Source: Pseudocercospora fijiensis CIRAD86
Taxonomy: Eukaryota; Ascomycota; Dothideomycetes; Mycosphaerellales; Mycosphaerellaceae
Reading direction: 5' to 3'
DNA length: 64,000 bases
Assembly: GCF_000340215.1 (NCBI RefSeq)
Contig: NW_006921532.1
Location: forward strand, 8,871,409 to 8,935,408
Below, one piece after another: positions 2,994 to 28,821 of the stretch. The notes beneath the pieces are model-generated. The model was not told the DNA's origin and did no database searches. It saw only the letters and a program-made list of their open reading frames with translations. Position 1 is the first letter of the stretch. The number at the start of each line of letters is the position of its first letter. The position numbers and the translations under genes are program-made.

Positions 2994-4240
2994 ACAATTA
3001 GAGACGAAGGGAAGACAGTTAAGAAGGAAGGGAGGACGAATAGAAAGCACTATATACTAGGGCAGAGGAGGTGCTAAAGGCGGAGGATGGAAGAACCCCT
3101 AAGAGGGCATATAGGATAATAATCTTAGAACTCCTTAGAGGACTGAAAGCAATCTACAACTAGGCAAGCTACGTAATTACAAAGGTAGCTAATACAGTCG
3201 CAGCAAAGATTACGAAGAAACAACAGGAGACAAGCCTAAACTACCGCACCTAGGCAGCAGTAGCTAGTTAGGAGGCGCTAAAACCCCCGAAGACAGTAGT
3301 TAGAGTCTATATTACGGACCTATAGGAGCAAAAGGAAATCTAAGGACTTATAGGGAAAGAGATTGTAAAAAGAATTACAGTTAAAGAGGTAATTAGGGCT
3401 AGGAACGAAGGTAATAGAGTAATCAAGCTGTTTATAGTATAAGAGCAGGACAAAAAGAAGCTAGAAACATAAAAAGAATAGACAACTAAGATAGGGAAAA
3501 CAGTAAAGGTCTCTTAACAACAGTTTATAATTATAGCCTACAGCATAACAAGAAGCTTTAAGGAAGAACGGGATGTTAAGAGCCTATAGAGACAAAACTA
3601 AGCTATATACCTAGGCCTGAAGATTACAAAAGTAGCATAGATTAAAAGGAAAGTCGAAGAGACTAAGAAGCAGTCTTCCCTAATTATCTAGGTAGGGAGT
3701 ACAGAGCAAGCTAATATAGTACTAGACTAGGGGTTGTTCTAGGACTTTAAAAGATTGGAAACAGAGATACACAGAAGCAACTATAGGATAATGCAGTGCT
3801 TCAAATGTTAATACTATAGACACTTAGCAGCTAAGTATATAAAGACAACTAACACTTGCTCCTATTATATAGGGGATTACTAGGTTAAAGAATGCAAAGC
3901 ATACAAGGGAGAAGCAAGATATATATGCTATACTAAAAGACACCCCTCTTAGGCGAAGGAATGCCTAGTAAGAATACAGGTAGCTAGGAAGGCAAAGGAA
4001 GCTAGAATCAATACACTAAAAAGATACACAATAAGCTAGGGCAGCTAAGTGCAGAAGCAACCTAGCTAAGTACTACAAAAGAGGTCTAGATAAGATAATA
4101 GGTTTACATTTAGGGCCTTACTAGCATAAGAGAGTTACTAGTAACTAGGGAGACTAAGATACCTTAATATTATAGGAAAGGAAGTAGGGTAGACAAAGCT
4201 TAGTTAAATATTAGTCTAAAGTAAGGGAAGACTAAAGGAA
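2994..4240 (+). pseudogene. LINE ORF1 (gag-like, zinc knuckles)
   Basis: ATG at 2994 opens a frame that stays readable ('MAANN*RRRED') with RIP stops. Near 3790-3985 there are three knuckle-like clusters: 'MQCFKC.YYRHLAAK', 'CSYYIGDY.VKEC' and 'YICYTKRHPS.AKEC'. Some cysteines and histidines have become tyrosine, as RIP predicts. ORF1 proteins of LINEs bind element RNA as ribonucleoprotein. The 3' limit is approximate. Confidence 0.7.
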
Positions 4241-4269
4241 AACTTATAGGGAAATGATATAGATAAAAC

Positions 4270-7200
4270 CTAATAAATATTGCAACATTACTGAATATTA
4301 TATAGTACAATATTAATAAGAGTAAAGACAAGGTGCAGAGGAGCTTTCTTTAAGCACTAAACCTAAAAGAACATTACATTATTGCAATCTAAGAGCCCTA
4401 GCTCAACCTATACATAAAGAGACTAGCAACAGTTAAAGACCTAAGATACTACCCAATTATCTACAACTAGGGAGCCCTAAGGACATACATCTATATTAGT
4501 AAGGAGATAGATATAGAAACCTAGCAGGCTATACTATAGGAGGATAGGGACCTAATATTAGTTTAAGTAGAGATATCCTAAGGTACACTCTAAGTCTACT
4601 ATATATACAACCTACTACTAGACTTAAGAAGCAGTACCTAACTGAAAACCCTAGAAAGACTACCTAGAGTTATCTAGGGGAATACCTACTAAATCCTACT
4701 TAGGGATTTCAACCTCTACTACCCCCTCTAGGGCTTAGACTTTACCCTAGCTTGCTACTTCCTAGTAGGAAGGCTAATTGATATATTAGAGAGGGAAGGA
4801 ATAGAAATTGTTACCCTAAAGGGACTAATTACTTAGGAGGCAAGAGGAAGCAGCAGCACACTAGACCTATACTTTACATTATATTAGATTAGGAATAGGA
4901 TTACAAGATATAGGGTTAACTAGGAACTAGAAGAATTATTAGACTACTTCCCGGTATAGATTAAGCTAGATGTCTAAGCCAATTAGGAAAGGGAACTAGA
5001 GGAGAAGCTTAACTAGAAAGGTACTAAATAGGGCAGGATTAGGGAGGAACTAGAAAGGGACCTAAAACTAGAGGAACTCTTAATAAAGCACCTACTAAGG
5101 CTAGAGGACATTAACAAGGCAGTAGAAGAACTAATAGGAATCCTAAAATAGGTAGCTAGAAAGCGTACCCTAGCAAAGAAACATTCACTATACTAGCAAC
5201 TATACTAGACTAGCAAGCACATAAGGAAGGTTAAAGCAGCAAGGAAGGCTAGGAGGTAGTAGACATAAACCTATACCTAGGAAGTATAGGACAACTATAA
5301 TAAAGCCTACTAGGAAAAGAAGATCTAGATTAAGAAAGATAAGATGCAAGAATAGAGATCTATAATAGGAATAATTACAAAGAAACTAGAGGAGATATAG
5401 AGGATAGCTAAATAGGTAAGGAGGCCTAAATAGGAAAAGAATATACTACTACAATTCCTAGACATTATAGACTAATAAGGACAAATGCAGACTATAATAG
5501 AAGGGAAAGCAAGAGCCTTAGGCTAATACTTCTTCTATAGAAAAGTATAAGCAGACCTATTAGATATAAAGGAGGAAGAACAAGAGACTCTACTACTAGG
5601 CATACTAAGAGACACCTAAGTTAAACCCGAAACTATCGAAAGGATCCTAAAGAAAATTCTAGGCAATAAGGTACTAGGAGAAGACAAGATCTATAACAAA
5701 CTCCTAAAAGCATACAGGAAGGGGCTAGCCCTAGCACTAGCTAATATCTTTTTATAAAGCCTAGCACTAGGACACTACCTAAGACTATTTAGGAAGTCCC
5801 TAACAGTAGTGCTAAGGAAGCCCTAGAAGGAAGACTATATATAGCTTAAGGCCTACAGACTAATAGCCCTACTCAATATAATAAGTAAGGTGCTAGAAAA
5901 AATTGTCGCTAAAAGGCTAATAACCTTTGCCGAGGAAAGGAACATCCTTCCTAAAGGCTAGATAAGAGGAAGAAAGAAGAGGTTAACACTAACAGCTATA
6001 GAACTAATTATAGAACAGATTAAGTATATCTAGCACTATAGTTAAAACTAGGTAGCAACCCTCCTCTCCCTTAACATCTTAGGAGCCTTTAATAATGTCT
6101 CCTATAAAAGACTCCTATATATACTCAAATAGAAAGCTATACTAGACTAGATAGTCTAATTTATCTAGTCCTTTCTATAGGAAAGATCGATACAGCTTAT
6201 TCTAGGCAAATTCAAATTAGACCTAATGCTAACTAAAAAGGGAATCCCCTAAGGATTAACACTCTCCCTAATCCTCTTCCTTATCTTTATAGCAGACCTA
6301 CTCCTACTCCTAGAATTAAAAAACATATTAGTATTAGGGTTTGTAGATAGCACAAACATCCTAGCCTAGTCTAAGACAATAGAAACCAACTATAAGATCC
6401 TAGAAGAGAAGCACTAGAAGTATAAAAAATAGGCAAAGAGGTATAGAGCAAAATTCGCCCTAGAAAAGTACTAGCTTATCCACTTTAGCAAGGCTAAATC
6501 AACCTATAATATAAAGCAATCAATCACTATCTAAGGCTTTAAAACCCAACTATTAGCAGAGCTTAGGGTACTAGGGATCTAGCTAGATCCAAAACTGAAT
6601 TAGGGACTATAAGTAAAGAAGGCAAAGCAGAGGGCAGATGCTAATATACAATCTATCAATAGGCTTATAGCCTCTATATAGGGGGCTATATTCGAGAAAG
6701 CTAAAGTTATATACAAAGCAATTGTCAAGCTAGCAATGCTATATAGAGTATAGATATAGACAGCCTAGGAGAAAACACTAAAGAGGATTAAGTAACTAGT
6801 TAGCAGGTCCTAAACCTAAAGCCTAAAGAAAATCCTAGGAGCATATAAAACTATACTAACAAGGGTAGTAGAAATGGAATTAGGGATCCTACTAGTTAAA
6901 CAATACTTTAAGGGACTAAGACACCAATATATAGCAAAGACAATAGAATACCTAGTCTAACAGACTATCTAAAAGGCACTAGACAAGATAAAAGCCTAGT
7001 ATATTAGGACTAGGAGGCGGGACAGACTACAAATAACTCCCTAGAAAGCTAAAGACCTAGAGCAATATAGAGTCTTAACAAGAGAAATACTAGAGAAAGA
7101 GCTTTAGGGACTAAATATAAGGCTAAAGGAAGACAAGCTAAAGGGAGAGAAACAAAGCCTAGTAGAATCAATTGCTAGGCACCTATAGGAGCAGGAATAG

Positions 7201-18300: not shown

Positions 18301-18867
18301 TAGCCGATAGGTGTTTACTATTAAGCGTGACGCTAATAGCAAGGTGAGCCGGTTTAAGGCTCGATAGGTCGTCCGTAGTTTTATATAGGTTGAAGGACAG
18401 GACTATAATAAGACCTATGCGGCTATAGCTAAGCTGTCTACGCTACGAGCGCTGTTTGCACTAATCGCTTATTACGACCTAGAGGCTAAGCAGTACGATA
18501 TTCTAACGGCCTTCCTTAATGCGCTTATCGGTAATAAGTATAAGATCTACGTCGAATAGCTATACGGTTTTAAGGACTGTAGTAGAAAGGGTATAGTTTG
18601 CCTATTGCTAAAGGTACTATATAGTCTAAAACAGTCGCTAATACTGTAGTACGAAGAGCTTCGAAAGTACCTAAAGAGCCTAGACTTTGTACTAATAATA
18701 GCTGATGTGTGTATGTTTAAACACGTTGTTAGCGGCTCTATTATTGTTATCTATATCGACGATATAATTATTATCGCCTATACTCTGTTAGTACTAGAGG
18801 TAGTAGCTTAGTTACTAAAGGACCGTTTTAGTATACGAGAGCTAGGCGACCTATACTACTATCTTAG
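15400..18867 (+). pseudogene. Copia gag-pol (gag, protease, integrase, RT)
   Basis: A single frame with RIP stops. The gag part has a Ser/Asn/Arg-rich tail (15835-15950) and a zinc knuckle 'KCLYY*GAYLSDRCY' near 15962-16003. Protease comes next ('VVDLGTSIYIVND', near 16270), then a GAG-pre-integrase/integrase region ('FRNCIACRIAMLYKEY', near 16770-16840). RT follows at about 18340-18860 with 'SRFKARQVVRSFIQVEGQDY', 'TYAAIAKLSTLRALFALI' and an intact catalytic 'VIYIDDIIII'. The frame ends inside 'YYYLS' where the hAT element inserted. Confidence 0.9.
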
Positions 18868-19080
18868 TAGACCCCGTAGTAGTTCGGGTTAGTTTAGTTT
18901 GGTTTGCTAAGCCGAAACTCTGGTTTGGTTTGGGTTGGTTTGCTAAGCAACTATATAAGTAGCTAGTTCGAACTATATAATTTATCGGTTTTTAAGAAGT
19001 GTACGAATGTATACGTAGCTTTAAGCAAGCCCTTTGTAAGACTTAGCAGTGTAGCCGGCAGCGTAGCCGGCATTTTTAGT
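18868..19080. repeat. Left terminal and subterminal repeats of the hAT element
   Basis: The inverted terminal repeat is followed by several copies of tggtttgctaagc-like and ggtttggtttgg-like motifs. A gtagccggcagc cluster follows at about 19053-19073. The same arrangement, reverse-complemented, forms the right end of the nested MITE. Confidence 0.85.
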
Positions 19081-19299
19081 CCTTAGTACTTATAGAATTT
19101 TCGAATCCTACTTAGGCTACGTAGTTATATAAAGGTACTTATATAACCTCAAATCTATAGACAATTAGCTAAGGGCACTAACCAATCAAAAGCATACATA
19201 TATATATACAAGGCATTATAGTTTAGTTCGGAAACTGCACTCCTTAGGTATGAATTTCATCCTTTCGTTTACGGTTCAATTCCCTAACTGCTTAGTAGA

Positions 19300-19836
19300 A
19301 TGTCTTTATCTAGATCTAGGCAGAACTCATCGATTTCCCTAGAAGTCCTCCTCCTTAAGAAGTTTATGCACTTTCCTACCGAACTATTCGATAATATTAA
19401 GTACTAGGATAGCTCCTCCCTCGGTATCGGTATAGTATATAAAAGAGCTATAAGGCAGCTCTATAGAACGTTCTACTAGTCACTCGCTATACTAAGGCCG
19501 AATGCTAGTTCGTTCCTTAGAACTCTTAGTTATTTAGGAGATATAAAGGGTAGGGCAGGTAGTGACTTCGTATTATATAAAGAGGTAGAGGCTGCTATAG
19601 AAGAGGCCTTCAACCTATAGAAGATAGTAAAAGATATAGAGGTAGCTGCAGGTCTAGGTACCTAGTTGAATTTTTAGTAGGTAGAGTATAAGGATATTTA
19701 GAGGGAGTATTAGGTAGAGTTGCGAAGGCAGGTATATAATATGCTCTAGAAAACAGGGATAGTGCCTATAACTATAACTATTAGGCTCTTTAACCTTCCT
19801 TATTTTTCCCTGTTTTCTTTTTATAAAAATCTAAAC
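19300..19836 (+). pseudogene. Unrecognised hAT cargo ORF (plus strand)
   Basis: A frame of about 178 codons starts at ATG 19300 ('MSLSRSRQNSSISLEVLL', 'FPTELFDNIKY', 'VEAAIEEAFNLQKIVKDI') and carries eight or more TAG codons that RIP explains. It has the helical, charged character of a real protein ('VELRRQVYNMLQKTGI'), but I do not recognise a family. It is the only cargo ORF I see on the strand opposite to the transposase, and it lies just inside the left end. The 3' limit is the first TAA in frame and could itself be a RIP product. Confidence 0.45.
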
Positions 19837-20133
19837 TAATACAAATCAACCGGAATGTCTATCTTCTTTTAGTTCTTTAAAAAACCTAGCAGCGTAGCTA
19901 GTAGCGTAGCCGGCAGCGTAGCCGGCAGCGTAGCCGGCCTTTTTACTCCTTAGTACTAACGGGATTTTAGGAGACTTCTATTCCGTACGGCTAATAAAGC
20001 ATACTATACTATATATATATGCTTAGAGAGTATTTAGAGCGCGGTATATAGCGCCGTATAATAGCGGCTTATTTCGCATATAGAAAAGCTTACAGATAAC
20101 ACTACGAACATCCTTTCTACTAGAACATCTATC

Positions 20134-20836
20134 CTACCTAGCACCGTCTCGAATATAGATATTCTAGCCTTTTAGAATCTAATCGAGTGCTTTAAAATCC
20201 TTGTCTATAATCGTTATACGCTTCGCGTAGATAGCTATAAGGTTGACCGCTAAAATAGTATTAGTATAGTCCGAAAAGAGGTAGAAGAGAAACATATATT
20301 CGAAGATACGAACTAGGTAGGCTTCTATAGCCTCTTAAAGGGCGCCTATCGCGGAGGCTTAGAAGCGAAGGTCCGTTCTATAATCCTAGGCAATTTCGCG
20401 AACAAGTCGTTAGAAAGGAGTTTTACGGATTAGGAGCTAAGAACTCTTCTAATACTACCGAATCTTACGGAGGGCTACGGCTAAAGAAGGATTAGTAAAA
20501 AGATAGTAAGAATGCCGGCTACGCTGCCGGCTACGCTGCCGGCTACGCTGCCGGCTATAAATAGGACTTACTTCCTAGGCGCTATCGACGCTTCGTACGA
20601 TTACTACTAGTAGTAGAAGCGCTAGTTGTCGTCTTACGTAGAGCCTTACCCGCCGTTGTCTTACGCGGAGCCTTACTCGCGACGCCCTTTCTAGCACCGG
20701 AGCTAGCGGCAGCAGTAGCAGCCCTCTTGCGTTAATATACTATACTCGTTCTACTATTTCCGGTCTTATTGCGACCCGTAGAAGCACTAGGTCCCTTCTT
20801 ACAAAGCGTCGTAACTTAGTTAAGTAGACTCGCTAT
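20134..20836 (-). pseudogene. Histone H3-like gene B of the hAT element, two introns, RIP-mutated
   Basis: Exons are 20572-20836, 20298-20480 and 20134-20249, together 564 nt or 187 residues. Intron 1 (20481-20571) keeps GTAAGT and CTAAT...TTTAG; removing it writes G-T-V-A-L-R-K-I-R across the junction, the hallmark H3 sequence. Intron 2 (20250-20297) begins ATATGT, a RIP product of GTATGT after T, and ends TTTTAG. The protein has an H3-like tail ('SKAPRKTTAGKALRKTT'), then 'LLIRKTPF.RLVREIA', 'DYRTDLRF.ASAIGAL.EA' and 'AIYAKRITI'. Loop 1 has canonical H3 length, not the longer CENP-A form. The start is taken at ATA (ATG before RIP) and is uncertain. Internal TAG/TAA codons make it a pseudogene now. 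Confidence 0.88.
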
Positions 20837-21339
20837 TATAAAAGTCGTCGAATTAAGGAAAAAAGTGCGTTACGAAGGTATACAAAGGCGCGCGCGGAGC
20901 GAGGGTATTACGGAGGTAGTAGATATAGAGCGTAGAGGTATAGGTATCGATACGAAGGTTAAATATAGCGGTAATGTCGCGGTGTCGCTAGGCAATAGAG
21001 TAAGCTTCGCGCAAGCCTACATTATAGTAACGTTAGAGCAAGGAAAGAAGGTAGGCACGGCTAAAAAAGGCAGGTACGGCTAAAAAAGGCAGGTACGGGA
21101 GACTTTGAAATATAGCCGGCATATATAGCCGGTATAGTAATAGGCGAAAGCCTCCTTTTAATAAATAGCCGGCGTAATAATAGTATCTTACTATAGTATA
21201 GATATTCTTTAGTAATGCCTTTACTAGCTATAGTAATCTTATAAATAACCTAGGCCTATTGCTAGTAAATATAAGAAATATCAGGTAGGCTATACTAAAC
21301 AAGCTAGTTATTTAGTAGGAAAAGGCCTACTACCGTCTC

Positions 21340-22050
21340 TATATGCCGGCTACGAGTGCCGGCTATCGCTCTAAATTCAACTCCGCCCTATCTCGGAGGC
21401 TAAGGTACCGAGCGGAAACCCTATAGCTTATATTTACTCGGTTGTCGCGGAGCGCTTATAGGTGAGGTATTAGAAAAGAGTATAAAAAGTACGAGAAGAG
21501 TATCCTAAGATATAGGTCGTAAGTAAATAAGAGTAGTACGCCTAGTTATTTATATAGTACGTTACTCTATACGACTAAGAGCCTATATTATCTTATGCTT
21601 CGCTTATAAGACCTCGACTCTACTAGTATACTATCGATCTCTTCCTCGGTCGCTAATACGCTGTCTTAATTCTTCTTCGAGTTGCCGGACTTAGTACGCA
21701 TCTATAGCTATATAATAGCGCTACGCATTATAGAGAATTTCTCGTTAAAGTTTCTCTCTCGTAGGCTTACTATCTGCCTCGTAGTATAGAGGATCAAAGT
21801 ACTAATGCTAAAGAATCTCCTTATAGTTAGGATACTAGGGCTCCTTAGGACCTTTGTGTTTTAGGTCTAAATAGAGACGTATTATAAACGTTCTATCGCC
21901 CTTTCGCTTACTACCCGCTAGGTCGCGATATACGAAGAAACTAATCTGAATATAGCTCGTCTCTATAATAGCCGGGTAAATATAGAGCGCTAGGTTTCTA
22001 CTTCGTACCTTAGATTTAGGGACGGCGCGGAGATAAAATCAGAAATATAG
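21340..22050 (-). pseudogene. Unrecognised hAT cargo gene between the two H3-like genes
   Basis: The minus-strand frame from about 22030 to 21340 contains 'IQISFFVYRDLAGSKRKGD', 'RTFIIRLYLDLKHKGPKEP' and 'DPLYYEADSKPTRERNF', with scattered TAG/TAA codons consistent with RIP. A GCCGGC-rich stretch at 22050-22080 lies upstream and may be an intron or the spacer to the H3-like gene A. I do not recognise the family. Length about 230 codons; start and exon structure are unresolved. Confidence 0.4.
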
Positions 22051-22128
22051 CCGGCACCTATAGCCGGCAAAAGGATACGAAAATAGGCCTCCTCCTAGGT
22101 TAATCTAACGACTAAATACAATTTCCAA

Positions 22129-22722
22129 CTAATCCGCTATAAACCGACGCCGAATTTTAGCTAGAAGCTGCATATCTTTATTTTAAAGAGTAACCCGCTT
22201 CGTATAGATAGCAAGGAGGTTTAAAAGCTTAAGCTCGGTTACGAGAAATGCCTCCGTAGCTTCCTAAAGAGCACCAATCGCCTTAGCCGTAAATCGTATA
22301 CTAGACCGAAAATCTAATGTAATTTCTCGGACGAGTCGCTAGAAGAGAGTCTTAGGGATTAAAAGCTCGGTCCCTCTTTTGTTTTAGAAAAGCCGGATCT
22401 AGCGAAGGGCAATAGTACCTAGTTTAAAGCGCTACTTCTTTGTCGTCGAGTCCTACCTTATTCCCTTTCTTTTAATAGAAAGATAACTTTTCTTCGCGAT
22501 AGTCTTCGTCCGCCTACTCTTTTTAGCCTTCTCCTATCTACCTATAGCCTTCTTGTTTTTCGGTACTGTTTTCCGAGGAACCCCCTTCCTTCGTATATAC
22601 TACGGAGAGCCTTACTCTTCCGATATCTCGTTCTCGCTACGGTCTCCCTATACTTAGCTTGCTTTACCCTTACCCTTTAGCCTCTAAAGATATTTATCTA
22701 CGCGTTTAGGCGACGAGGGCAT
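22129..22722 (-). pseudogene. Histone H3-like gene A of the hAT element, intronless, RIP-mutated
   Basis: From ATG (22720-22722) to TAG (22129-22131) there is one frame of 197 codons with about 13 internal TAG/TAA codons, all explained by CAG, CAA or TGG to TAG/TAA. The first 100 residues are a lysine/arginine-rich tail longer than that of H3 ('KKAIGR', 'KAKKSRRTKTIAKKS'). The histone fold follows: 'RFKLGTIALR.IRLF', 'GTELLIPKTLF.RLVREI', 'LDFRSSIRFTAKAIGAL', 'EATEAFLV' and 'AIYTKRVTL.NKDMQLLAKI'. This matches H3 helices alphaN, alpha1, alpha2 and alpha3 in order. It differs strongly from gene B, so it is not a simple recent duplicate. A normal H3 is about 136 residues. Confidence 0.87.
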
Positions 22723-23084
22723 ATCGGTAGGACCTAGAAAATTAATAAGCATATAATCGTAAGGAGACATTAATGCTTCTTACCTTCTAGAACAAATAGT
22801 CTTCTATTAAACCGCCTTATTAGGTTATCGTTAGATTCGAATAAAGGATAGTAGCTTAAGGAAGGGGAGGTAGCCGGCTTAGGAAGGCCCGAAGAGCCGA
22901 ATCCTTAAGGTATATTTATCTTTAAGAATATAGGGAAAGGGAAGAAGGAGAGGAAGAGCGAATAGAGAATTAGAAATAGTCCGTAGGTAAGCGGGGTTAG
23001 TTGCTATAGCAACTAGTCTGTTTAGGTCCTAGGAATTCGAAATACATTTCGGATATATACCGGCTATATACGCCGGCTATATTA

Positions 23085-26000
23085 CCTTATACGTAAACGC
23101 TTCGTCTCCTTAAAGCTGCTCTAAGCCTATATACGTTTCCGCTTCTCGATCCGGTATCGCCTTCTACCTCCGCCCTCCTCCTCTTCGTTATCGCTAATTA
23201 GGGTTTCGCTTAGACTAAATTTCCTATTCTCTTCGCGCTCCTAGGTTTCTTCGATCTCAAGGTTTTCTAATTCCTCGATTAACTCCTTTAATATAATCTT
23301 TAGTAACCTACCTTAGCGATTCTAGTAGAGGAGATAGTATCGGAATACTATAATAGATTCGAAGGTAGTAGGCGAGTATGTTCGATTAAAGCGGCCCTAG
23401 TAATAAGCGATACTAAAAGACCTCTTATAGCCTATGCCTACGCTCGGGATAGCGAGGACGTCCCGAGCGACCGACGCTATCGTTAGAAACTTAGGCTCTA
23501 ACCGCTACTATATAGCGAGAATATCGTCTCCGAATTCGTCTAGAAGACCGGTAAGATCTAGAGATTATTAGCCCTCTTTCCGAGCCTACGGGTTTATACT
23601 TACTCGCGCGCCGATAGAGATCGAACTCTTCTTTATTTACTTTAGTAGTTGCTTCCTCTTCTGCCTCTACTTCCTGCCTACGAAATAGGTATAATGTCGG
23701 AGCCTTCTAAACCTTCTTTTTCTTTATAGGAGCTGCATTTAGACTAGTTTCTTTCCGACGCTTATAGAACATCTTTTCTAGAATAGTCTAGTAATGCTTC
23801 GGCTATACCTCGTCCGCCTTCTATTCCGGCCTCTACTAGTATATATCCTTTTCTACCGGGTTAAGCAAGCACGCAACGCTATAGATATCCCCGAACGAGT
23901 TAAAGGTAGCACTATAATATTTATGCAACTTAGTATAGGAGGTGTCTATAGCTTTCGTTATAGCTACTTTCTAGAGAACGCTCTTCTTAGCTAGCTTAGC
24001 TGCGGTTTCCTCGAGCTCGTTAAAGAGCTAGTTATAGTACGTAAAGACAAGGTAGATCGTCGGTCCTTAGGTTCTTCTAATCGTAGCAGTAACCTTCGCG
24101 TAATGCTTACTAATATCGACGAGATACTCTACTTAGCGCTATTCGGCGGCGGTAAGGCCGAGCTACTTAATACCCTCGGAACTCTAATAGATCTCGAGAG
24201 CGGTACGTAAAGTATATCCCCTTATAACTATATAGAAAGTCGAATCGAACTGGGTCTTAACGTCTTAGGTAAAACAGAGTAGGCGCTAAGGAGGCCGCTT
24301 TTGCTATCGCTTATTCTATGCGATATTCTAGGTATCGGTTTTAGGGCGCTCGATTAGGTTCTTTTAAATAGCCTCGAATCGGTTATATCTCTATAAGCTC
24401 GAGTTCGTATATATTGCTAGACGACGAAGCTAGAGAAAAAGAGTTAGAACTATACTAGGTTGCCGGCTATAGGTGCCGGCTACGGACAAAAGTTATACCT
24501 TATATAAAACGAGAGCGAGGCTCTCTACCTTATCCCGTCTTATTGCTATAATAAGTTTCTCGACTTTCGACTTTACTTTATCCTTATCTAGGATCTTCTA
24601 TTGGTCGTCGTTTAATAGTGCAATTTTAAGCGTCTTAAAGAGGGCTCGGATCGCGATTTAAACTATATAAGCGAGGCAGGGAAACTTCTATAGGGATACA
24701 ACTAGCAACGACGTCGGCTCCGATTTAATAGGGCTAGGGCTATTAATAGGCTCCTCTTTATCGTTATTATCGTGCGTATTATCGTACGTATCCGGAATCG
24801 TAGCGAGCTTAACATTCGGAAGATTAAGCTAGATTGTAGACCTTGTAATCTCCTCTACGTACTCGACCCTATCGATACAATTAGTAATTTTAAAGATATA
24901 TACGAGTGAATTGTATATACAACGCCTTATACAATGTTCGATTATTACTAGCGTTGTCCGTAGTAATCGAGATTAGTTTCGTTATTACGCTAACCCTATC
25001 TATTACCGTATAGACAAGCTTCGCTATATCCTTACTAGTATAGGAACCTAGAATTTTAGGGAATCCGATTATAAGTTCCTAGAGTTTCTAATCCGAATTA
25101 ATAAAGTATAGTATAATCGAGAGGAAGGAGGCTCTTATAGTCCGGCTTAACTAGCTATCGATAGTAATAGCTACTCGGCGAGTATTACGGAGGATCTCCC
25201 GAATGTCGTCTAACGTAGCCTCTTTATTCTTTTCGAATATAATACGCTAGGTTATCGCGCCGAGAAATAGGGGAGGTAGACCCCGTAGTAGTTCGGTTTC
25301 CGAACTACTAAACGTATATAGTTTGGTTTCTTAGCGGTACCCCTCCGGTTTGGTTCCGGTTTAGTTTTTTGCCCCGCTAGTCTAAGCTAGTTTCCGAGGA
25401 AACTACGACGATATACGACGACCTCGGAACGAGTCCGGCACGCGACGGGGGCCCTATATTGTATACGCTATACGATTGCATCCGTATTTCGGGCTGTTTA
25501 GACGTGTTTTGGGATGGGTTTTTGTCCGTAGCCGGCACGTAGCCGGCAAACCGGTCCGTGCACCGGTTTCTTAGCAAACCAAACTAAACCAAACTAGAAT
25601 TTCGGCTTAGCAAACTAAACCAACCTAACCCGAACTACTGCGGGGTCTAGGGGGAGGGTAGTTTATAAGATATAGGTATATCTTCTATATAGACTCCCTT
25701 TCGTAGAAGTCTTCCGGAAGACCGTTTGTAGCTAGCATTTCGTTTACTAGTTGCTTAAAGTCTTCGGGGGAGAAATTGGTAGCCTTCAATCCTAGAGCTT
25801 CCTTAAGCGTAGCCTATAATAATTAGCTAGATCTCTACGGTTGATTTAGGTAGCCGGAATCTATAGCCGGCAGCTGTAGCCGGCAGCTATAGCCGGTATT
25901 TTAGAAGACATACCTCTTTCTAGAACGCTATATCTATATTAACTCTCCTCTCTCCTTAAGATTCCCGATACCGTTTAGAATAGAGATAGTTCGTAGGCGA

Positions 26001-26570
26001 TAAGTTCCTATCCCCTAGTTTCGGGTGTTTTAAGATTAAACCGTAGAAGTTGCAGACAATTACTAGTTAACCTTTAAGTCGAGAAGTCGTATAACGGTGT
26101 AATGCCCCCTCTATAAAGAACTTCTAGAATGTGTCCGTTCGCTCCTTACTCCCCTATCGTATCGAGTACTTCCGGAGTTTATACTCCTTCGAACGTAAGT
26201 ATAAAGGGAACTATATCTTATAGACCTATTAATTGAACTGCTCTATATACTCGGGTTTCTAAAGATACGCCTAGCTAGCCTTTTCGAAGATTTCCGAGTT
26301 AATACTCGATGTTCTTATATCTCCGAACAACCTTCTACTTAGACTCCGTAAAGGTAAGGACTAGGTAGTAGTACCCTATAATAAATTCCTACTACTAGGA
26401 TTCGGAGAGGATAAATCTAGCCCTAATCGTAGTCTAGGACTCGATAGGCTCGAAGGTAAGTATGCGACCTCCTCTCGACGTTGTCGCAATCTCGCTCGTA
26501 TACTAGACTGTTTCGACTATCGTCTCGTTATTACCCTTCCTAGTATAGCGCCTAGTATATATACAATGTC
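23085..26570 (-). pseudogene. hAT transposase, multi-exon, interrupted by a MITE
   Basis: ATG at about 26570 follows a TATAAAAG box. A long N-terminal region comes first, then intron 25835-25913 (GTATGT...TAG, GCCGGC-rich), and 'ALGLKATNFSPEDFKQLVNE'. The MITE sits next; removing it with one TSD restores the frame 'NYPPPFLGAIT'. The core follows: 'RRVAITIDS.LSRTIRASF', 'TTDNASNNRTL' and 'KFPCLAYIVQIAIRALF'. Intron 24430-24498 and the C-terminal hAT dimerisation block come last ('DDILAISQRLEPKFLTIA', 'ARDVLAIPSVGIG'). hAT transposases cut and paste DNA with an RNase H fold. Many TAG codons inactivate it. The N-terminal zinc finger (BED) was not recognised. Confidence 0.85.
25277..25649. mobile_element. 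373-bp hAT MITE nested in the transposase
   Basis: It has the same TAGACCCCG...CGGGGTCTA ends as the large hAT. Its left end matches the reverse complement of the large element's right end, and its right end that of the left end. It is therefore a deletion derivative in opposite orientation. The flanks are AGGGGAGG and GGGGGAGG; the single mismatch is a TG-to-TA RIP change. The middle is less RIP-altered and GC-richer (about 25380-25560), without a convincing gene. Confidence 0.92.
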
Positions 26571-26689
26571 GGTCGGCATGTTTTAAGGTTTCGTACGGTA
26601 AGGTAAGGACTTAGGAGTAGTAGATATATACTAGTAGCTATAGAGAAACACCCTTTCTTTTATAGCATCGTATCGTTAGGAACAGCTAG

Positions 26690-26815
26690 GCAGTAAATAG
26701 CTAGCTACCTTTTTTTTTTGTTTCCTAGCTACCTAACTACTAGATTTTTTTTCCTAGCTACCCTAGCTAGCCTAACTACTAGAATTTCTTTCCTAGCTAC
26801 CCTAACTACCTGAAT
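26690..26815. repeat. Tandem CCTAGCTACCCTAACTAC repeats
   Basis: About four imperfect copies of a 30-40 bp unit (cctagctacc-taactac-tagaatt plus a T run) lie between the transposase start and the end of the right-hand cargo gene. They may be the intergenic spacer or promoter region of the transposase. Confidence 0.75.
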
Positions 26816-28230
26816 TTTGCCTTCTATACGGCGGCTCTCTCCTACTAACGGAACCGAGCTACTATACCTAACGAATCCAAGCTCGTTTTTAGTCTCAATC
26901 TATCCTCTTTCGGTATAAGACACTCGATAAGCAAATGCTTAGGCCGAGTCTAACTACGAAACCTAAGACTAACTAACAGCTCTATTAACTAATCCTAATC
27001 CTCGAACTCCTTCCGCTTCTTAGTAAAGACCTTAAAGAGCGCTCGAGCTTCTTCGGGTACCTGCGGAGTAGTCGAGATAAAGCCGTATCGCTAAAATAGG
27101 TAATCCTTCGGAGGCTTATATAGAGATTTAGAGAATTCTAACGCTAACCTATCCTACTAGTAGCTTAGATTCCGGATATAAGCCCTCTCTGCCTTAGTAA
27201 AGATTTTATATAGTAGTAGCACTCTGCCTTCGAGAAACGCTTTCTATTTAACTGTTAGTATCTGCCGGCTACGAACGCCGGCTATATATGCCGAGTATAG
27301 AATAATTACCTGTACCCCTTCCTCCTATAGTAACACTTCTGCCGTCCCTAGATACCTAGCCCCGATCGCATTAATCGCAAGCTACTTTGCCTTTATAGAC
27401 GTAAAGGCTTCGCTCTAATACTAATAAAGAAACTTCTACTCTATATCGAGGATATAAAGACGACTAGTCTCGATTCTAATCCTTGCTAGCTTTTCGTAGT
27501 AGCTTTAACTATGATTTTCTAGATTAATAGGACTTATACCTTAGCCCTTTACTAGTATCTCGTCTCTTTAACTGTGCTCGATCTACTCCTAGCGCTTATC
27601 GTCTATAGCGTTAGGCCCTAAGACTGCACCTATTACTAGATCGACGTATAGTATCTCCTCGCTTTTTTCAGTTCCTTTATTCGTAGTATTAAGCTCTATC
27701 GCGGCATCCTAAACTCTAGTATTATTGTTCTCGGCTATCTAAACATCTCCGTTACTATCGGTCGTATCGATAGAGATAGCGGCTATAGGTCTAAATGCTA
27801 TTAGTTAACGTATTAAAGAAAAATATGCCGGCTATAGCTGCCGGCTACGGCTGCCGGCTATAGCTACTAGCTACGGCCGCTAGCTAGATTAACTTACGCT
27901 ACTAGAACTTTACGCTCGAAAACTAGCCGCAATTCTTTCCTCCTCTTAGCCTTCTCTTAGGTTGTCTTCTTATTCTAACCTTCACTTTTTTCTATAGGCG
28001 CTAGCTATCGATAGAATGCCTTATTCCGCGCCTTTCTTCTCTTATCCTTAGCTCTTTTATCCTTATCTATCTTATCCTTTCTCTCGCGGTCTCGTACGAA
28101 ATTCTTCTTCGTAGAGTACTCCTCTTTAGTCTTGCGCTTTTTAGTTAGACGCTTAGGTAAAACAAACTCGCGGTCTTTAGTTCTATCTTCTATTTAGCGC
28201 GCGGCGCGCTTCTCTCTTACTATTGTAAGG
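26815..28230 (-). pseudogene. Unrecognised hAT cargo gene with three exons
   Basis: Two introns are clear: 27791-27897 (GTAAGT...TTAACTAAT...TTTAG) and 27244-27309 (GTAATT...ATACTAACAG...ATAG). Both join the frame correctly ('VLVA' to 'PIAAISIDTTD', and 'EEGVQ' to 'KAFLEGR'). Both contain GTAGCCGGC repeats. The protein is about 400 residues. Its N-terminus is very basic ('PKRLTKKRKTKEEYSTKK', 'RDRERKDKIDKDKRAKDK'), suggesting nuclear location or nucleic-acid binding. The rest is mixed charged/helical ('YYEKLARIRIETSRLYILD'). I do not recognise a domain. It is RIP-inactivated and its start is unresolved. Confidence 0.55.
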
Positions 28231-28339
28231 GAAAGGGGCGGGGGCGCAGCGTATAGTAGTTATTATCGGTATAGATGTAGAGGAAGAAGTTAAAAGTATA
28301 AGAATATCGCGAAGCCCTAATTGTTGCCGCCTACGTAAC

Positions 28340-28660
28340 GTTATATAGGTAAGCTTTCGCAACTACGGCAACTACGCCCCGGCAATAGCAACTACGCCCT
28401 AGTAACGGCAACTACGCCCTAGCAACGGCAACTACGCCCTAGCAACGGTAATAAAGCGTAGTAAATACAACCTAGTAACTATTATAGCCGGCAATCGTAG
28501 CCGGCAGTCGAATAAGAGTGTCCTTATAGCAAAACTACGCCCTAGCAACGGCAACTACGCCCTAGTAACGGCAACTACGCCCTAGCAATAGCAAAAGAGC
28601 GTAGTAAATGTAATAGAGTTACTATTATAGCCGGCAATCGTAGCCGGCAGTCGAATAAGA
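28340..28660. repeat. Subterminal minisatellite at the right end of the hAT
   Basis: There are two arrays of a roughly 20-bp unit (ggcaactacgccctagcaac), at about 28345-28450 and 28535-28600. Each is followed by the same 55-bp block containing gccggcaatcgtagccggc. The whole is a duplicated module of about 150 bp. Subterminal repeats are typical transposase-binding regions in hAT elements; binding here is inferred. Confidence 0.85.
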
Positions 28661-28821
28661 GTGTCCTTATAGTAAAACTAATACAGTCTCTAGTTCAAAC
28701 TAGGAATCTATATAGTTCGAAAAAACCAAACCGGAACTAGGGAGCTAGTTCGCCGCTAAGAAACCAAACTATATACGTTTAGTAGTTCGGAAACCGAACT
28801 ACTACGGGGTCTATATCTTAG

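What the first reader, a model, noticed from the sequence alone, without database searches (positions are those of the whole stretch)
20134..22722. Two histone H3-like genes carried inside a hAT DNA transposon
Seen: two minus-strand genes with the full H3 fold order (G-T-V/I-A-L-R, R-L-V-R-E-I, R-F..A-I-G-A-L.E-A, K-R-[IV]-T) lie between hAT ends with a perfect 8-bp TSD. They sit on the same strand as, and downstream of, the hAT transposase. They differ greatly from each other: gene A has a long basic tail and no introns, gene B a shorter H3-like tail and two introns. Known: H3 sets nucleosome identity, and cargo histones are not a standard part of hAT elements. Inference: an autonomous hAT lineage may have captured and diversified H3 variants, perhaps to make its own chromatin or counter silencing. 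I know of no description of this.
Basis: partly seen in the sequence, partly recalled or inferred. Interest (0 to 1): 0.92.

Follow-up and report, generated by a model that had tools for sequence, protein, structure and literature searches.

The report
Dead jumping gene carrying histone genes
A jumping gene in a leaf-spot fungus carries two altered copies of the DNA-packing protein histone H3, crippled by the fungus's own defence; this was published in 2019, but one copy seems to hold introns that the earlier study took for an insertion.

Summary
The window lies in a Pseudocercospora genome, most likely P. fijiensis. A 9,946-bp hAT element (18868-28813) with 20-bp inverted ends and a perfect 8-bp duplication carries two minus-strand histone H3-like genes downstream of its transposase, both broken by RIP. 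This is not new: Dhillon et al. 2019 (PMC6710886) described it in P. fijiensis (9.5-9.9 kb, 20-bp TIR, 8-bp TSD, one or two H3-like copies per element, 784 copies, RIP-inactivated). A hAT with an H3-like gene was reported in Pyrenophora tritici-repentis in 2013 (PMC3538342).

The second is exactly 48 bp, the length of the paper's '16-aa insertion', so its intronless-transcript origin does not fit this gene. Against one diverged subfamily, 5 of 5 indels in the H3 coding sequence are multiples of three, versus 3 of 23 in non-coding DNA; against a second, 5 of 5 versus 6 of 19. This suggests a coding phase during diversification. Substitution tests between subfamilies support it for the downstream gene only, in 2 of 3 pairs. 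No function is shown.

The parts
18868..28813 (-). hAT element, RIP-inactivated, genes on the minus strand
   Evidence: 20-bp terminal inverted repeats, TSD TATCTTAG at 18860-18867 and 28814-28821; 8 of 20 fetched copies are complete (9.56-9.94 kb) with identical 8-bp TSDs
18860..18867 (.). target-site duplication, left copy
   Evidence: TATCTTAG
28814..28821 (.). target-site duplication, right copy
   Evidence: TATCTTAG
23300..26300 (-). hAT transposase remnant (limits approximate)
   Evidence: window 25219-24947 is 35% identical over 94 aa (E 6e-8) to an open piece of a hAT frame elsewhere in the genome (L040); L042 gives E 7e-7 in the same place; L039 and L041 give nothing below E 0.3. Pfam DUF659 and Dimer_Tnp_hAT searches do not list this copy
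22129..22722 (-). H3-like gene A: long basic tail, no intron, 13 in-frame TAA/TAG stops in this copy
20572..20800 (-). H3-like gene B exon 1: H3-like tail with a KAPRK-type repeat (start uncertain)
   Evidence: a naturally open copy of this exon (L027) finds only H3-type chains (H3, Cse4, H3/CENP-A chimeras) among the 60 rows shown of 85, best E only 0.034
20481..20571 (-). gene B probable intron 1 (91 bp, contains a GCCGGC minisatellite)
   Evidence: GTAAGT donor in 20 of 20 aligned copies, one identical branch/acceptor string in 20 of 20, lengths 55/79/91/103; 69 bp with the same donor and a slightly different acceptor string in L044
20298..20480 (-). gene B exon 2 (first part of the histone fold)
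   Evidence: 183 bp in all 20 aligned copies
20250..20297 (-). gene B probable intron 2 (48 bp = the '16-aa insertion' of Dhillon et al. 2019)
   Evidence: acceptor TAG 20 of 20, CTAAT branch-like string 20 of 20, canonical GT donor in 4 of 20 copies; shuffle null 0.00115 with a RIP-tolerant donor
20134..20249 (-). gene B exon 3 (loop 2 and last helix)
   Evidence: the aligned 120 bp are the same length in all 20 copies
25277..25649 (.). nested 373-bp element with the same ends, inside the transposase
   Evidence: TSD AGGGGAGG / GGGGGAGG, 7 of 8; at most 2% covered in the 20 fetched copies

Best explanation
This is one RIP-killed copy of a high-copy hAT transposon family of Pseudocercospora that carries two H3-like genes downstream of its transposase: the family described by Dhillon et al. 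2019. Shown: TIRs, 8-bp TSD, many near-identical copies, both H3-like genes in every two-ended copy sampled, and RIP-type stops in every copy sampled. Inferred from knowledge of hAT elements: the transposase bound the short ends and moved the 9.6-9.9 kb unit by cut-and-paste, taking the H3 genes along; RIP then mutated CpA to TpA in the repeats. Inferred here: gene B descends from an intron-bearing H3 gene, or gained introns, and was spliced; both genes kept their reading frame while the subfamilies diverged, so they were probably coding for part of the element's history.
For: Structure and TSD; 8 of 20 fetched copies complete with identical 8-bp TSDs; 11 of 11 two-ended copies with both genes. 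RIP signature over 1-38 kb: TA o/e 1.43-1.80, CA o/e 0.14-0.67. In-frame stops: 18 of 18 aligned gene A copies (8-13 each) and 20 of 20 aligned gene B copies (8-10 each), with 0 TGA. Match to the published element in size, TIR, TSD, two H3-like copies, 16-aa difference and the original H3 on scaffold/contig 6. Genus: a SET-domain protein of the window is 92% identical to P. fuligena and 87% to P. musae. Introns. Frame-keeping indels: 5 of 5 against 3 of 23 non-coding (F3, Fisher p 0.0006) and 5 of 5 against 6 of 19 (F44, p 0.011). Gene A against gene B: synonymous transversions exceed replacement ones in 9 of 9 pairs (p 0.0024 or less).
Against: Pfam DUF659 and Dimer_Tnp_hAT searches do not list this copy's transposase and pieces of it match no hAT family; hAT kinship rests on TIR, TSD and a match to 2 of 4 hAT frames. 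Between subfamilies the transversion test finds no purifying selection in gene A (3 of 3 pairs), in gene B's tail or in the transposase used as positive control; in gene B's core it is seen in 2 of 3 pairs, which share the F3 branch. The one indel in the transposase stretch is 1 bp, and L034 has a net 2-bp loss in gene B exon 1. The spacer used as indel control aligns poorly and holds foreign DNA in F3. Intron 2 is a multiple of 3, has no stop in this copy, and 16 of 20 copies lack a canonical donor. The introns show fewer transversions than the exons (F3: 1 of 90 and 0 of 48 against 59 of 529; F44: 3 of 69 and 0 of 48 against 33 of 499), odd for introns. The A-B and host comparisons include time before capture. 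Species is not proven beyond genus.
Confidence: 0.92

Rival explanations
1. Passive transcript capture (Dhillon et al. 2019): a host H3 mRNA or retrocopy was captured once, was never useful, and was killed by RIP; the second copy simply gained 16 amino acids.
For: Gene A is intronless. All sampled copies are dead. Transversion tests between subfamilies are flat for gene A and the transposase. Authors' own analysis.
Against: Gene B: GTAAGT donor and CTAAT/TAG acceptor string in 20 of 20 aligned copies; intron 1 is 1 mod 3 in the window type and F3 but 0 mod 3 in L044, and splicing gives GTVALR in all three. It lies 3 nt from host H3 intron 2, in the same phase. Coding indels are multiples of 3 in 5 of 5.
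Confidence: 0.25
2. Working cargo: the H3 variants served the element, for example by altering nucleosomes on its own DNA or by opposing silencing.
For: Both genes in all 11 two-ended copies; frame-keeping indels; purifying signal in gene B's core against F3 (tv S 13.0/54.0, N 12.0/187.0, p 0.0006); a hAT in Pyrenophora also carries an H3-like gene with ESTs.
Against: No expression or binding data. Gene A, gene B's tail and the transposase lack the substitution signal between subfamilies. Selection before capture cannot be fully separated from selection after it.
Confidence: 0.25
3. CenH3 origin: one or both genes derive from the host centromeric histone.
For: Gene B's tail has a TAAASSG stretch like the start of the CenH3-like gene on C5.
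Against: Core identity to host H3 exceeds that to the CenH3-like gene (A_W 48/88 against 44/90; B_W 55/83 against 46/86), and there is no CenH3-type loop-1 insertion. The CenH3-like gene's intron lies elsewhere.
Confidence: 0.05
4. Two unrelated insertions: the H3 DNA is a separate nested element that happens to lie inside one hAT copy.
For: Nesting does occur here (373-bp element at 25277-25649).
Against: The same arrangement recurs in 11 of 11 two-ended copies at different sites.
Confidence: 0.01

Closest known systems
H3-carrying hAT family of Pseudocercospora fijiensis (Dhillon et al. 2019, PMC6710886)
   Same: Length 9.5-9.9 kb, 20-bp TIR, 8-bp TSD, one or two H3-like copies per element, RIP, 16-aa length difference, original H3 on scaffold 6
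   Different: The paper calls both copies intronless; here gene B has two probable introns and the 16-aa difference equals intron 2. The paper's copy counts were not reproduced here, and its consensus sequence was not compared.
hAT element with H3L of Pyrenophora tritici-repentis (Manning et al. 2013, PMC3538342)
   Same: hAT transposase, extra ORFs and a diverged H3-like gene inside TIRs
   Different: 5.6 kb, one H3-like gene, nearly identical and mostly intact copies with ESTs; the 2019 authors found no DNA similarity between it and the hAT elements of their six genomes
Canonical histone H3 of the host (L001)
   Same: Fold order, GTVALR, RLVREI and AKR motifs; gene B's tail resembles the H3 tail
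   Different: Core identity only 55% (A) and 66% (B) in the window copy; tails changed; stops

Membership tests
hAT superfamily | 8-bp target-site duplication | tested here: met
   TATCTTAG in the window, and 8 of 20 fetched copies with identical 8-bp TSDs
hAT superfamily | short terminal inverted repeats | tested here: met
   20-bp TIRs
hAT superfamily | hAT transposase (DUF659, dimerisation domain) | tested here: inconclusive
   Pfam searches of the genome do not list this copy; pieces give no hAT family; matches to 2 of 4 hAT frames, best E 6e-8 over 94 aa
P. fijiensis H3-hAT family of Dhillon et al. | 9.5-9.9 kb, 20-bp TIR, 8-bp TSD | tested here: met
   window copy 9,946 bp including a 373-bp nested element; eight others 9.56-9.94 kb
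P. fijiensis H3-hAT family of Dhillon et al. | two H3-like copies differing by 16 aa | tested here: met
   48 extra bp between FE and NLIAIYAKR in gene B, absent in gene A
P. fijiensis H3-hAT family of Dhillon et al. | sequence identity to the published consensus | not testable with these tools
Histone H3 family | Pfam core histone domain over the cut-off | tested here: met
   74.5 bits (A) and 56.1 bits (B) against 26.4, with stops as X
Histone H3 family | incorporation into nucleosomes | not testable with these tools
   no expression or protein data
CenH3/CENP-A | longer loop 1 in the histone fold (recalled as a mark of CenH3; seen in this genome's CenH3-like gene) | tested here: not met
   alignment of the cores with the CenH3-like gene
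Transduplication (host gene carried by a DNA transposon) | host-type gene between the TIRs in many copies | tested here: met
   11 of 11 two-ended copies

The most novel reading that the evidence does not exclude
The H3 genes were not dead passengers caught once as an mRNA. They were long-resident, spliced, protein-coding genes of the hAT lineage, kept in frame while the element split into subfamilies, with gene B evolving a variable-length repeat of an H3 KAPRK-type tail motif. A transposon would then have carried its own H3 variants, possibly to change the chromatin on its DNA.
Probability: 0.3. Interest if true: 0.75.

Novelty: already known. Interest (0 to 1): 0.35.

Why it matters
The element and its H3 cargo are in print, so the finding itself is not new. 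The re-annotation matters modestly: if gene B is spliced, the published single capture of an H3 transcript does not explain it, and whether the element used the histones becomes testable in relatives with intact copies. A transposon-encoded histone variant under selection would bear on how transposons escape silencing.

Tried and rejected
Transversion test for purifying selection between subfamilies: not significant for gene A in 3 of 3 pairs, for gene B's tail or for the transposase control, so it is no general proof. The first gene B core result (S 13, N 14, p 0.002) used a slightly longer core than the one quoted (S 13.0, N 12.0, p 0.0006). Against host H3, synonymous transversions exceed replacement ones at p below 0.05 in 5 of 6 pairs, but that includes time on the host branch.

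Tree of 9 cores: gene A and gene B each form one group; with midpoint rooting, few rows and RIP noise it does not say whether they are sisters, so I draw nothing from it on origin.

Pfam, NCBIfam and PDB searches with transposase pieces gave no hAT family; the PDB rows were unrelated chains at E 0.01 or worse.

CenH3 origin was considered because of the tail of gene B and rejected on core identity and loop 1. An unrelated nested insertion was rejected on recurrence.

Paper searches for 'transposon-encoded histone' and similar phrases returned 0 papers. That the intron reading is not in print rests and on the parts of PMC6710886 that I read (abstract, background, results, discussion, methods), not on its figures or supplements. 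PMC4981457 was asked for, which failed; I saw it only as a listing. PMC8616336 was seen as passages and is not used.

Rows dropped: the gene B alignment left out L032 and L035 (no match) and L044 (tail too different for the script); the gene A alignment left out L021, L032, L033, L035 and L038 (no match). L045 was read but put in neither alignment.

Full report
What is there. The window is part of a 73.9-Mb fungal genome in 30 contigs. Bases 1-38,000 carry a strong RIP-like signature (TpA o/e 1.43-1.80, CpA o/e 0.14-0.67 in 2-kb steps); the blocks at about 40-46, 50-54 and 58-64 kb do not, and 46-50 and 54-58 kb again do. An element with ends TAGACCCCGTAGTAGTTCGG spans 18868-28813 (9,946 bp) between two copies of TATCTTAG. 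It interrupts what I read as a Copia-type pol (my reading; not tested against a profile). A 373-bp element with the same ends lies inside it at 25277-25649 (TSD 7 of 8).

Host. A SET-domain protein of the window is 92% identical to one of Pseudocercospora fuligena and 87% to one of P. musae.

Copies. The left end gave 504 candidates, of which 40 were scored; I fetched 10 kb at 20 places, all from those 40. Eight have the right end and an identical 8-bp TSD, at 9.56-9.94 kb. Three more (L023, L027, L030) have a right end without a TSD in register. Nine have no right end within the fetch. The gene B stretch is present in 18 of 20 and the gene A stretch in 15 of 20; the five copies without gene A cover only 6-28% of the element. 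All 11 two-ended copies carry both genes. So no intact copy lacking the genes was seen, but this is a sample of 20.

Gene A (22722-22129, minus) has a long basic tail, no intron, and 13 in-frame stops in this copy. Gene B (about 20800-20134, minus) has an H3-like tail and a histone core split by two probable introns. With stops as X, Pfam Histone scores 74.5 bits (A) and 56.1 bits (B) against a cut-off of 26.4. In every aligned copy both are broken: 18 of 18 for A (8-13 stops) and 20 of 20 for B (8-10 stops), with no TGA, as RIP would give. Genome-wide, PF00125 gave 772 candidates; 150 were scored, and by my reading 148 of these have stops. Nine of the 148 were compared with the window and all nine match this element's DNA: L002-L008, L044 and L045. 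The 2 without stops are the host H3 and a CenH3-like gene.

Introns in gene B. Intron 1 (20571-20481) begins GTAAGT in 20 of 20 aligned copies and ends with one identical CTAAT-containing branch/acceptor string in 20 of 20. Its length is 91, 79, 103 or 55 bp in those copies (all 1 mod 3). In the subfamily member L044, which that alignment left out, it is 69 bp (0 mod 3), with the same donor and a slightly different acceptor string. Splicing gives GTVALR in all three types. Host H3 intron 2 splits the glycine of PGTVALR in phase 1; gene B's intron 1 splits the next codon in phase 1, 3 nt away (my reading). Intron 2 (20297-20250) is 48 bp, with TAG acceptor in 20 of 20, CTAAT in 20 of 20 and a canonical GT donor in 4 of 20; the other 16 are altered in the way RIP alters bases. 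Shuffles of the inserted stretch meet these criteria, with a RIP-tolerant donor, in 0.115% of 20,000 trials. Its removal restores the register of H3 loop 2. I rate intron 1 at 0.95 and intron 2 at 0.8; neither is shown by RNA.

Comparison with print. Dhillon et al. 2019 (abstract, background, results, discussion and methods read) report in P. fijiensis 784 H3-like copies in 471 hAT repeats, full length 9.5-9.9 kb, 20-bp TIR, 8-bp TSD, RIP in all, and a 16-aa insertion in the second copy. They conclude that an H3 transcript or retrocopy was captured because introns are absent. That is this element. The 16-aa insertion equals intron 2, so the argument from absent introns fails for gene B, though it may hold for gene A. 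Manning et al. 2013 (first part of section 20, plus passages) describe an H3-like gene in a Pyrenophora hAT with ESTs. A 2026 paper on Pseudocercospora repeats cites the 784 copies (passages only).

Were the genes coding inside the element? Two diverged subfamilies, F3 (L003 joined to L043) and F44 (L044), one copy each, were compared with the window copy. Indels in coding sequence are multiples of 3 in 5 of 5 against 3 of 23 in non-coding DNA (F3), and in 5 of 5 against 6 of 19 (F44). The two comparisons share the window copy, the spacer aligns poorly, and the single indel in the transposase stretch (1 bp) is in neither group. Transversions, which RIP does not make, show fewer replacement changes in gene B's core for window/F3 (S 13.0/54.0, N 12.0/187.0, p 0.0006) and F3/F44 (p 0.017), but not for window/F44 (p 0.3). 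Gene A shows nothing in 3 of 3 pairs, nor do gene B's tail or the transposase. Gene A against gene B shows a synonymous excess in 9 of 9 pairs, but that split may be older than the element. The evidence is suggestive, not firm.

Tail. In 4 of 20 copies exon 1 is 27 bp longer, adding one KAPRKTTAG-type unit. L034 instead has a net 2-bp loss there. A naturally open copy of the exon (L027) finds only H3-type chains among the 60 PDB rows shown of 85, best E 0.034, so the match is weak one by one. By eye the tail keeps the equivalents of H3 K9, K14, K18, K23 and K27 but not K4 or S10 (my reading).

Mechanism. Shown: mobile unit, cargo, amplification, RIP death. Inferred from hAT biology: cut-and-paste by the transposase acting on the short ends. 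Inferred here: splicing and a coding phase. Unknown: function.

Verdict. Already known as a system; the intron re-annotation and the frame-keeping indels are additions. Interest 0.35.

Noticed in passing
25277-25649: A 373-bp element with the same ends and a 7-of-8 TSD is nested in the transposase; not seen in the 20 fetched copies.
   Followed up: partly
19046-19072, 19895-19947, 20505-20557, 21109-21136, 22048-22070, 24460-24482, 25850-25902, 27822-27874, 28483-28507: A 12-13-bp GCCGGC-type minisatellite recurs along the element, including inside intron 1 of gene B, where its copy number varies between copies.
   Followed up: partly
20250-20297 and 20481-20571: Both introns of gene B differ less by transversion from F3 (0 of 48, 1 of 90) than the flanking exons do (59 of 529); weaker against F44 (0 of 48, 3 of 69 against 33 of 499); unexplained.
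   Followed up: no
20572-20800; L023, L025, L027, L037: Exon 1 of gene B has one extra 27-bp unit in 4 of 20 copies, lengthening the H3-tail-like repeat.
   Followed up: partly
window 4001-6000: CpG o/e falls to 0.09 with strong AT skew, unlike most of the RIPed surroundings.
   Followed up: no
L027 and L030, left ends: A short extra stretch separates the apparent target duplication from the left TIR in both copies.
   Followed up: no
L046 (G000:C5:606200-607000): A CenH3-like host gene without stops in its exons, with an intron inside the RLVRE region.
   Followed up: partly
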